A stretch of 34,532 bases of DNA from Moraxella sp. (GTDB taxonomy: Bacteria; Pseudomonadota; Gammaproteobacteria; Pseudomonadales; Moraxellaceae), in the NCBI GenBank assembly GCA_030528385.1, contig JAUMYZ010000017.1, positions 1 through 34,532 of the forward strand, written 5' to 3'. Below the pieces are notes generated by a model. The model saw nothing but the letters and a program-made list of their open reading frames with translations. It ran no database searches and was not told where the DNA came from. A program made the position numbers and the translations under genes. This document shows, piece by piece, positions 1 through 2,352 of this stretch (positions are counted from its first letter, which is position 1; the number at the start of each line of letters is the position of its first letter).

Positions 1-760
1 CCGTCTTGCCGCTTTTATCAATAAAGCCGTATTTCCATTTATCGCCCTTGGTAACGCTGACCGCCGCCAAGCCCTCTTGAAAGCGATGGGCAGGCTCATA
101 ATAAACGTCCCAGCCATTGTATCTAAATGGTATCGCCACCTTGCCTGTCTTGTCAATAAAGCCCGCCTTATCCCCTATCATCACCGCTGCCAAGCCTTCA
201 TGAAAATCATCGGCGGCGTCATATTTAAGCGGCACCACGGTCTTGCCTGTCTTGTCAATAAAGCCGTATTTTTCTGCGTACTCCTCACCATCGCTGACCA
301 CCGCCAAGCCTTCGCTAAAGTCATAAGCTGCGCTGTACTTTAGGGAGATGACTACCTTGCCTGTCTTGTCAATAAAGCTCACCTTGTCATCTTTATAAAC
401 GCGCGCCAAGCCCTCGCTAAAATCATAAGCAGCATCATACTGCAGGGGAATCACCAGCTTGCCTGTCTTGTCAATATAACCATAGCGTTCACCATCATAA
501 ACGCGCGCCAAGCCCTCGTGAAACACCCCGACAAACTCATAGCTGTCTGTATCAACAATGCGCTGCCCTGCACTATTAACATACGTCCACTCGCCTTCTT
601 TGAGTGCATTTGCCACCCCCGCTTTTAGGCAACCGACATGATCATAACCCTTTACTTGCGGCTTTTCACACGCCGACGCCCCCTGACTGGCAGCAAATAC
701 AGCAACCACCGCAGCTGCGGCAAGCTTAGCAGGTCTGCTAAAATGGACTGAAGATTTCAT
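1..760 (-). CDS. Exported WG-repeat protein, partial (C-terminus beyond window)
   Basis: The first 253 codons are visible and the gene runs off the window edge with no stop. The start is ATG at 760, preceded by AAGGAG eight to nine bases upstream. Residues 1-30 form a signal peptide (basic start, long Ala/Val core, ASA before Cys31). After a header motif CEKPQVKGYDHVGCL the protein is a string of WG-type units of about 45 residues, each ending in a (Y/F)G(Y/F)IDKTGK-like motif; at least five are visible. WG repeats are presumed beta-rich binding modules, but no enzymatic role can be assigned. The neighbour at 977-2244 is a clear paralogue with the same header and units. The position before Cys31 does not give a good lipobox, so I infer periplasmic or secreted rather than lipid-anchored. 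Confidence 0.85.
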   Translation of the reverse strand, partial: MKSSVHFSRPAKLAAAAVVAVFAASQGASACEKPQVKGYDHVGCLKAGVANALKEGEWTYVNSAGQRIVDTDSYEFVGVFHEGLARVYDGERYGYIDKTGKLVIPLQYDAAYDFSEGLARVYKDDKVSFIDKTGKVVISLKYSAAYDFSEGLAVVSDGEEYAEKYGFIDKTGKTVVPLKYDAADDFHEGLAAVMIGDKAGFIDKTGKVAIPFRYNGWDVYYEPAHRFQEGLAAVSVTKGDKWKYGFIDKSGKT

Positions 761-924: not shown

Positions 925-953
925 AAAAAACGACAAACCGTAATGATTTGTCG
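925..953 (-). terminator. Rho-independent terminator after the second WG-repeat gene
   Basis: In the minus-strand RNA a seven-pair stem CGACAAA/TTTGTCG (931-937 with 947-953) encloses a nine-base loop and is followed directly by a T6 run (925-930). It lies 24 bases after the stop at 977. The stem has modest GC content but the geometry is typical. Confidence 0.65.
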
Positions 954-976
954 CATTAAAACACAGATAACCAATC

Positions 977-1555
977 TTAGTAATCAACAGGGTAAATCTC
1001 GCTACGCTTCACCCATTTATTTACAGAATTCGTGATAGAATTTTGACAGTAACCCCGATAATCTCTTTGGGTGCACTGTTCTTCGGTAGTCTGCACCTGC
1101 ACAAGGTCACCCTTGAACTCTAAAATCATACCTTTATCAACAACATCCCCCTGTCTGAGCTTTTTACGGAATTCCGCCAATGATGAGCGCTTAGTCAAGA
1201 CCTTACCTGCTTTGTCAATGTAGAAGTAGTAGGGTGTTTTGCCATCTCGCGCCCCTACTTGTGCTTGACCATTTTGAAAGCCACCAGCATAGTCATATTG
1301 AAAGGCAATGACTGCTTTACCATTTTTATCAATATAACCGTACTTACCATTCTTTTTAACCGCTGCCACGCCTTCGCTAAAATCGCTCGCGCCATCATAT
1401 TGCAACGGAATAATCACCTTGCCATCTTTATTAACAAAGCCATATTTACCGCCGTTGTACACCCACATTAAATCAGCATAAACTTCGCTTACCGCCTCAT
1501 ATTCATCACCTTGTTTGCTAACATAAGAGTTTTTGCCATTCATCACCTTTCTCAC
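977..1555 (-). pseudogene. 3' part of frameshifted WG-repeat gene
   Basis: This reading frame carries the second half of the WG-repeat protein whose first half lies at 1552-2244. It contains three more WG-type units (KYGFVNKDGKVIIP, KYGYIDKNGKAVIAF and a diverged YFYIDKAGKVLTK) and a distinct tail of about 65 residues that has two Cys and no repeat motif. Reading back across the G8 tract with six or nine G gives FRG(G)AFAAVRK, which continues the repeat consensus, so the two frames were one protein of about 421-422 residues. The ATG at 1555 lies inside a repeat, lacks a good ribosome site and has no signal peptide, so I do not regard it as an independent gene. The stop is followed by a terminator. 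Confidence 0.8.
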
Positions 1556-2244
1556 AGCAGCAAAAGCCCCCCCCTAAAGTCATCAGCGGACGCATATATC
1601 GCTGGAACTGCCAACTTGCCTGTTTCATCAATAAAGCCTACGTAATATCGACTAGCGCCCTCCACTTGAACCCATGTCATTCCATTCAAAGAAGACATAG
1701 ACAAATCTACATATTCAATTGGTGTTACCGCCCTGCCAGTTTTATCAATAAAACCCCACTTACCACCCTTTTTTACTGGCGCTAGACCTGTTTCTCGAAA
1801 AAAATCAAAGTCATCATACTGTGGCGATACAACCTCTTTACCAGTCTTATCAACAAATCCCCACTTATCCCCCTTTTTTACTGGTGCAAAACCGCGACTA
1901 AAATTATTGACGCTATCGTACTGCGGTGATACCACTTCTCTACCAACTGTATCGACAAACCCCCATTTACCGCCCGCCATTACCACTGCCAAGCCTTCAG
2001 AGAAACTCCAAGCACTATCATACTGCAATGGAACAACCACTTGACCTGCTTTATCGACAAAGCCCCTTTTACGATTCTTTACAACTATTGCCAAGCCTTC
2101 ACTCAAACAATCCACTCTGTCATACCCACTGACCTGTGGCTTTTCACATGCCCATACCCCCTGACTGACAGCTAAAACACCAACGGTAGCGATGGCTAGG
2201 CACAGCTTACGGACTGGACTGGACTGGACTGATATTGTCATCAT
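1552..2244 (-). CDS. Exported WG-repeat protein, 5' part, ending early at a G8 tract
   Basis: The start is ATG at 2244 (or the adjacent ATG at 2241), with AAGGA six or nine bases upstream. Residues 1-32 form a signal peptide ending VWA before Cys33, followed by the header CEKPQVSGYDRVDCL and five WG-type units (for example KWGFVDKTGKEVVSPQYD). Codons 4-12 contain four tandem AGTCC pentamers and are in frame in this sequence. At the G8 tract the frame runs into LLLL and a stop, giving a 230-residue truncated product. The remaining repeats follow in another frame (977-1555). WG repeats suggest a surface or periplasmic binding role, otherwise unknown. The gene is either phase variable and currently off for the full-length form, or carries a homopolymer sequencing error. 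Confidence 0.8.
   Translation of the reverse strand: MMTISVQSSPVRKLCLAIATVGVLAVSQGVWACEKPQVSGYDRVDCLSEGLAIVVKNRKRGFVDKAGQVVVPLQYDSAWSFSEGLAVVMAGGKWGFVDTVGREVVSPQYDSVNNFSRGFAPVKKGDKWGFVDKTGKEVVSPQYDDFDFFRETGLAPVKKGGKWGFIDKTGRAVTPIEYVDLSMSSLNGMTWVQVEGASRYYVGFIDETGKLAVPAIYASADDFRGGLLLL
1567..1574 (-). repeat. Homopolymer tract, eight G on the coding strand
   Basis: C8 on the plus strand, G8 in the WG-repeat gene. In this state the frame ends four codons later. Seven G also ends soon after, while six or nine G restores the downstream WG repeats. This is the classic layout of a slippage switch in coding sequence. Confidence 0.85.
2211..2230 (-). repeat. Four tandem AGTCC pentamers in signal-peptide codons
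   Basis: The coding strand reads AGTCC four times, codons 5-12 of the WG-repeat gene. Four copies keep the frame open. Three copies give TCC AGT CCG TAA and five copies give GTA AGC TGT GCC TAG, both early stops. The paralogue at 760 has one AGTCC at the matching place (745-749), so this looks like expansion of an ancestral single unit. Confidence 0.85.
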
Positions 2245-2323
2245 TGATATTCCTTATGTCAAGATAAAACAAGTGCCACAGACTGACACCAAACAAACAC
2301 AGTAGATACACCGTGCATAACAA

Positions 2324-2352
2324 ATCATAACAAATATGCACAGATATTGCAA
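2324..2352 (-). promoter_or_regulatory. Promoter candidate for the second WG-repeat gene
   Basis: On the minus strand TTGCAA (2347-2352) and TATGAT (2324-2329) are separated by exactly 17 bases, about 80 bases before the ATG at 2244. It lies in the 151-base gap after hrpA and is a strong match to the housekeeping consensus. Confidence 0.5.

What the first reader, a model, noticed from the sequence alone, without database searches (positions are those of the whole stretch)
2211..2230. Pentanucleotide repeat in signal-peptide codons acts as a predicted on/off switch
Four AGTCC units lie directly after the start of an exported WG-repeat protein. Working out the frames by hand, three or five units each create a stop codon within about 14 codons, while four units keep the gene open. 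This mirrors the logic of Neisseria opa genes (pentamers in leader codons), but in a WG-repeat family where I know of no such switch.
Basis: partly seen in the sequence, partly recalled or inferred. Interest (0 to 1): 0.78.

Follow-up and report, generated by a model that had tools for sequence, protein, structure and literature searches.

The report
Short repeat in secreted protein gene
A Moraxella gene for a probably secreted repeat protein carries four copies of a five-letter DNA repeat in its export signal, which could act as a random on/off switch, but the gene is already cut in two by a frame break at a run of eight Gs further down, and nothing yet shows that the repeat changes length.

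Summary
The array is real: four perfect GGACT units at 2211-2230 (AGTCC on the coding strand), the longest pentamer array in 499,537 sampled bases of this genome. The frame logic holds: of 0-8 units only 1, 4 or 7 stay open; 3 and 5 stop at codons 11 and 18, and no other start codon lies before codon 44. But the gene is not open to its end. It stops at codon 231, just after a G8 tract (1567-1574); about 190 residues, including a conserved C-terminal domain, lie in another frame. A syntenic ortholog has leader and domain in one frame, and the out-of-frame part shows purifying selection, so the break looks recent. The assembled state is 'leader open, protein cut short', not 'ON'. Four pentamers can switch (H. 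influenzae hsdM, as summarised in one paper), though a Neisseria survey asks for five. The array occurs in 1 of 22 Moraxella genomes. No second isolate or reads were available, so length variation is untested. Most likely a young slippage-prone locus in a duplicated WG gene; a decaying duplicate is nearly as likely. Known kind of switch, possible new target.

The parts
2211..2230 (-). (AGTCC)4 array, codons 5-11 of the ORF, in the n-region of the presumed signal peptide
2149..2244 (-). presumed Sec signal peptide, 32 codons (by eye; no predictor run); no ATG/GTG/TTG in frame between codons 3 and 43
1552..2244 (-). ORF1, 230 aa, WG-repeat protein (PF14903, 5 stretches), ends just after the G8 tract
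1567..1574 (-). G8 tract at which the reading frame is lost; second slippage-prone tract of the same gene
977..1555 (-). ORF2, 192 aa, two more WG stretches and a conserved C-terminal domain, in another frame than ORF1; same gene by comparison with paralog and ortholog
2324..2352 (-). sigma-70-like promoter TTGCAA-17-TATGAT, with a counterpart in the aligned ortholog; a consensus match only, one of 9 in 700-2500 (3.5 expected)
930..954 (-). hairpin terminator-like site after ORF2; counterpart visible in the ortholog's sequence
1..760 (-). tandem WG-repeat paralog, runs off the contig end; its 3' part is probably on contig C11; only one AGTCC in its leader

Best explanation
This is one gene of a large family of probably secreted WG-repeat proteins in Moraxella, tandemly duplicated beside a helicase gene. 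It carries two slippage-prone tracts: (AGTCC)4 in the signal-peptide codons and G8 in the middle. Shown: the tracts, the frames, the frame break at G8, the conservation of the part behind it. Inferred: slipped-strand mispairing changes the tract lengths reversibly, so that cells differ in whether they export the protein (pentamer) and in whether it has its C-terminal domain (G tract). In the sequenced genome the pentamer is in the open state and the G tract in a cut-short state.
For: Array far above composition-based chance and the longest pentamer in a 24% sample of the genome. 3 and 5 units stop within 18 codons, and no start codon rescues the signal peptide. The C-terminal domain behind G8 shows purifying selection (88 codons against the ortholog: dN 0.126, dS 2.1 by NG86; 0.147 and 0.95 by YN00), so it was translated for most of its history. 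The ortholog is a single frame through leader and C-terminal domain. 3 of 13 G tracts of eight or more split an ORF, while 0 of 33 A/T tracts of eight or more in the sample do by a rough rule (18 in intact ORFs, 15 elsewhere), which speaks against a general homopolymer artefact. Longer G tracts (G12, G11) lie at or just upstream of the starts of two other genes, which suggests poly-G switching in this genome. Precedent for four pentamers: H. influenzae hsdM (GACGA)4, four to three at a high rate (summarised in PMC2651432, passage).
Against: No length variation was seen; no second isolate or reads were available. Array in 1 of 22 Moraxella genomes for this unit and in 1 of 54 WG segments for any pentamer of 3 or more units. 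The leader of the ortholog differs by 3 bases, not a unit. Four pentamers and G8 both lie below cut-offs used for Neisseria (5 and 9; PMC5953494), and the M. catarrhalis study dropped mononucleotide tracts that reached only 7 or 8 (PMC7302503). G8 tracts are no more frequent than base composition predicts (13 tracts, about 28 expected), and 4 of 13 sit in intact long ORFs. Frame splits also occur at 4 of 239 A/T tracts of seven by the same rough rule. The N-terminal part, leader and first repeats, is less constrained (91 codons: dN/dS 0.27 by NG86, 0.47 by YN00). Pentamers of 3 to 3.6 units occur in other, ordinary-looking genes.
Confidence: 0.45

Rival explanations
1. Decaying duplicate: after tandem duplication one copy became dispensable, slipped at G8 and is now a pseudogene; the pentamer is a neutral low-copy repeat that never switches anything.
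For: Second WG copy next to it and further WG matches in the genome (19 in all). Frame lost at G8. Array in 1 of 22 genomes. Pentamers of 3-3.6 units elsewhere in the genome.
Against: Apart from the G8 break both halves are open, and the domain behind the break shows purifying selection; promoter-like site and terminator-like site are kept. This only shows that any decay is recent.
Confidence: 0.37
2. Stable truncated gene: the pentamer does not vary and the 230-aa product, without the C-terminal domain, is the working protein.
For: ORF1 alone has five WG stretches; the C-terminal domain was found in 2 of 22 Moraxella genomes while WG matches were found in 21 of 22, so most WG proteins do without it.
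Against: The C11 copy and the ortholog keep the domain in one frame with WG repeats and it is conserved in the window copy.
Confidence: 0.08
3. Ribosomal or transcriptional slippage at G8 makes both products at once, without any change in the DNA.
For: ORF2 is in the -1 frame and the tract reads G GGG GGG in the phase of a slippery site (frames; the motif is recalled).
Against: No stimulatory structure: RNA behind and around the tract folds no better than shuffles (z 0.48 and 0.98). C11 copy and ortholog have no G tract of seven or more in the WG gene.
Confidence: 0.05
4. Assembly or sequencing error at G8 (and perhaps at the array).
For: Draft assembly of 20 contigs; the gene lies near a contig end within a WG gene; reads could not be seen; 2 of 2 G/C tracts of eight or more in the sample split an ORF.
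Against: 4 of 13 such tracts in the whole genome lie in intact long ORFs, and 0 of 33 A/T tracts of eight or more split an ORF by the rough rule.
Confidence: 0.05

Closest known systems
Neisseria opa genes, CTCTT repeats in leader codons
   Same: Pentamer in leader-peptide codons, translational on/off by frame, constitutive transcription (passages of PMC6803597)
   Different: Different protein family; opa loci with 1-4 units fall below the survey's cut-off (PMC5953494, passages); here a second tract further down already breaks the frame; variation not shown
Haemophilus influenzae type I hsdM, (GACGA)4
   Same: Four pentamers inside an ORF; reported to change from four to three at a high rate (Zaleski et al. 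2005 as summarised in PMC2651432, passage)
   Different: Restriction-modification gene, not secreted; switching was measured there, not here
Moraxella catarrhalis mid/hag (G6-G10 in ORF), modM (CAAC in ORF), modO (CAACG upstream)
   Same: Same genus; G tract in an ORF near the length seen here; a pentamer at modO (PMC7302503, section 12)
   Different: No gene of the table read is named as a WG-repeat gene; tract lengths differed between strains there

Membership tests
SSR-mediated phase-variable (contingency) locus | Tandem repeat whose unit is not a multiple of three, inside the ORF near the 5' end | tested here: met
SSR-mediated phase-variable (contingency) locus | Change by one unit ends the frame early | tested here: met
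   3 units stop at codon 11, 5 units at codon 18; no start codon between codons 3 and 43
SSR-mediated phase-variable (contingency) locus | Repeat number at or above a length known to switch | tested here: inconclusive
   Below the Neisseria cut-offs of 5 pentamers and G9; above the search thresholds for pentamers in M. catarrhalis and H. influenzae; four pentamers switch in H. influenzae hsdM as summarised in PMC2651432
SSR-mediated phase-variable (contingency) locus | Repeat number differs between isolates or within a culture (the decisive feature) | not testable with these tools
   One genome per species held; no reads. The locus is therefore a candidate only
SSR-mediated phase-variable (contingency) locus | Supporting, not defining: tract shared by related species | tested here: not met
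   AGTCC x3 found in 1 of 22 genomes of the genus; the ortholog has only two AATCC units. Other strains of the same species could not be tested
Neisseria opa family | Opa outer-membrane beta-barrel protein | tested here: not met
   Only PF14903 WG repeats match in Pfam
WG-repeat proteins (PF14903) | Match to the WG repeat profile above the curated cut-off | tested here: met
   ORF1 197.2 bits, ORF2 91.9 bits, cut-off 25.6

The most novel reading that the evidence does not exclude
A two-tier switch in one gene: the pentamer in the signal peptide decides whether the WG protein is exported at all, and the G tract decides whether it carries its C-terminal domain, giving none, short and long forms from a tandemly duplicated secreted WG gene in Moraxella; the first phase-variable WG-repeat protein that I know of (from recall and the listings).
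Probability: 0.2. Interest if true: 0.6.

Novelty: new member of a known kind. Interest (0 to 1): 0.36.

Why it matters
WG-repeat proteins are widespread and poorly understood; 21 of 22 Moraxella genomes have matches to this one. If one is switched at random, that would hint that these proteins face the host or competitors and that being without them pays at times. It would also show that a pentamer array as short as four units deserves attention outside Haemophilus, since the Neisseria cut-offs would pass over both tracts of this gene.

Tried and rejected
Repeat tracts as a general habit of Moraxella WG genes: rejected for what was looked at; of 54 WG segments (71,594 bases with flanks, in 44 stretches from 15 of 22 genomes, chosen by hand from the listed hits, a list that was cut) only the window gene has a pentamer of three or more units or a G/C tract of eight or more. 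Programmed -1 frameshifting at G8: no structure support. A unit-step difference between window gene and ortholog: rejected, the gap in the array is 3 bases. A solved structure of a relative: none by sequence at E 0.01. Fold prediction: machine busy four times, not obtained. Literature: no paper on WG-repeat proteins in Moraxella or on their phase variation among the papers listed (20 of 187; 20 of 122; 30 of 37; 2 of 3); the unlisted ones were not seen, and the WG terms mostly hit unrelated papers.

Full report
What is there. The window is contig C15 of a 2,046,605-base draft genome in 20 contigs. The genus is taken to be Moraxella: six genomes held under the same genus have contigs of the same length as named Moraxella records; the species was not identified. 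Four perfect GGACT units lie at 2211-2230, with one further base. On the coding strand these are AGTCC units from base 15 of an ORF that starts at 2244. A run of 16 matches at lag five is far beyond chance: the maximum in 120 second-order Markov copies of the window was 11, and 7e-6 are expected from base composition.

The frame claim. I recomputed the reading frame for 0 to 8 units. Only 1, 4 and 7 units stay open past the leader. Three units stop at codon 11, five at codon 18. Between codons 3 and 43 there is no ATG, GTG or TTG in frame, so no common start codon would save the presumed signal peptide. The signal peptide itself is my reading of the sequence; no predictor was run.

ORF1 is not the whole gene. 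It ends at codon 231, right behind a run of eight Gs (1567-1574). The next ORF, 192 aa (1555-977), is in another frame and goes on with two WG stretches and a C-terminal domain. That domain was found in 2 of 22 genomes of the genus: twice in this genome and once in G011. In G011 the gene sits between a helicase gene and a ketoacyl-synthase-like gene (names recalled from the sequences), and leader and domain form one 189-aa frame. In the window genome a second copy begins at 760 and runs off the contig; contig C11 begins with WG repeats and the same domain in one frame, followed by a like ketoacyl-synthase gene, so it is probably the other end of that copy. The window gene is thus a gene split at a G8 tract.

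How old is the split? Over 88 codons of the C-terminal domain, window against G011, dN is 0.126 and dS 2.1 (NG86) or 0.147 and 0.95 (YN00). Window against C11 gives dN 0.162 with dS saturated under NG86, and 0.20 against 1.13 under YN00. The WG part of ORF2 against C11 (104 codons) gives 0.356 and 1.85 under NG86; YN00 failed. The N-terminal 91 codons against G011 are less constrained: 0.176 and 0.64 (NG86), 0.207 and 0.44 (YN00). The neighbouring helicase gives 0.142 and 0.99 (NG86), 0.142 and 0.84 (YN00). The part behind the break has been under selection as protein for most of its history. This fits a recent break, reversible or not; it does not tell a switch from early decay. A promoter-like site at 2352-2324 has a counterpart in the aligned G011 sequence; it is one of nine such matches in 700-2500, with 3.5 expected, and a better-scoring match (10 of 12) overlaps the start codon at 2262-2234. 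The hairpin terminator-like site at 954-930 has a counterpart in the G011 sequence.

Is it an artefact? The genome has 22 overlapping G8 matches, which I collapsed to 13 tracts. On inspection three split an ORF (the window gene, a G9 at C4:28263, a G8 at C16:22014), four lie in long intact ORFs, and six are elsewhere, at gene edges or in a short frame. In the 499,537 sampled bases a rough rule found splits at 0 of 33 A/T tracts of eight or more (18 in intact ORFs, 15 elsewhere), 4 of 239 A/T tracts of seven, 0 of 6 G/C tracts of seven and 2 of 2 G/C tracts of eight or more. A general homopolymer error is therefore unlikely, but an error special to G tracts is not excluded, and reads were not available.

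How special is the array? In the same sample, which was partly chosen for WG genes, there are eight pentamers of three or more full units; this one is the longest (4.2), the next is 3.6, near the start of a gene that looks like a pseudouridine synthase (recalled). So the array is the tail of a background of short pentamers. AGTCC x3 occurs in 1 of 22 genomes. Of 54 WG segments from 15 of 22 genomes, this gene alone has a pentamer of three or more units. The ortholog's leader has two AATCC units and a 3-base gap, so the two do not differ by a whole unit. The genus does have repeat arrays: 9 of 22 genomes hold CAAC arrays of five or more units, though not this one.

What is known. Opa genes switch through CTCTT repeats in leader codons (PMC6803597, passages). 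A survey of Neisseria set cut-offs of five pentamers and G9, and by them counted opa loci with 1-4 units as not phase-variable (PMC5953494, passages). A study of M. catarrhalis searched for more than two pentamers and more than seven mononucleotides, dropped mononucleotide tracts that reached only 7 or 8, and lists mid/hag with G6 to G10 in the ORF (PMC7302503, passages and section 12). A paper on H. influenzae summarises that (GACGA)4 in hsdM goes from four to three units at a high rate (PMC2651432, passage). Four units can thus be enough, at least in another genus.

Conclusion. The most likely reading is a low-copy, slippage-prone locus with two tracts in a duplicated, probably secreted WG gene (0.45); a young pseudogene is nearly as likely (0.37). 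The missing test is tract length in further isolates or reads.

Noticed in passing
L169:1501-1512 (G000 C5:50012): G12 tract, C12 on the coding strand, just ahead of the first ATG of a capsule polysaccharide gene (PF05159) that follows another PF05159 gene; may be a phase-variable capsule locus.
   Followed up: partly
L166:1501-1509 (G000 C4:28263): G9 tract splits a gene into a 105-aa and a 504-aa open frame; the longer part has no Pfam match, the shorter was not scanned.
   Followed up: partly
L180:1501-1508 (G000 C16:22014): G8 tract splits a gene whose second part matches PAP2 and, below the cut-off, a dual-specificity phosphatase.
   Followed up: partly
L184:1501-1511 (G000 C20:175971): G11 tract about 55-65 bases upstream of the start of a DUF4407 protein; possible promoter tract.
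   Followed up: no
L123:1-745 against L124:5731-6300: The C-terminal domain of the C11 copy is much closer to the G011 gene (98 codons, dS 0.22-0.27) than the neighbouring helicase is between the two genomes (dS 0.84-0.99), which suggests exchange of WG gene ends between species.
   Followed up: no
window 2316-2335: Two tandem copies of CATAACAAAT overlap the -10 box of the promoter-like site of the WG gene.
   Followed up: no
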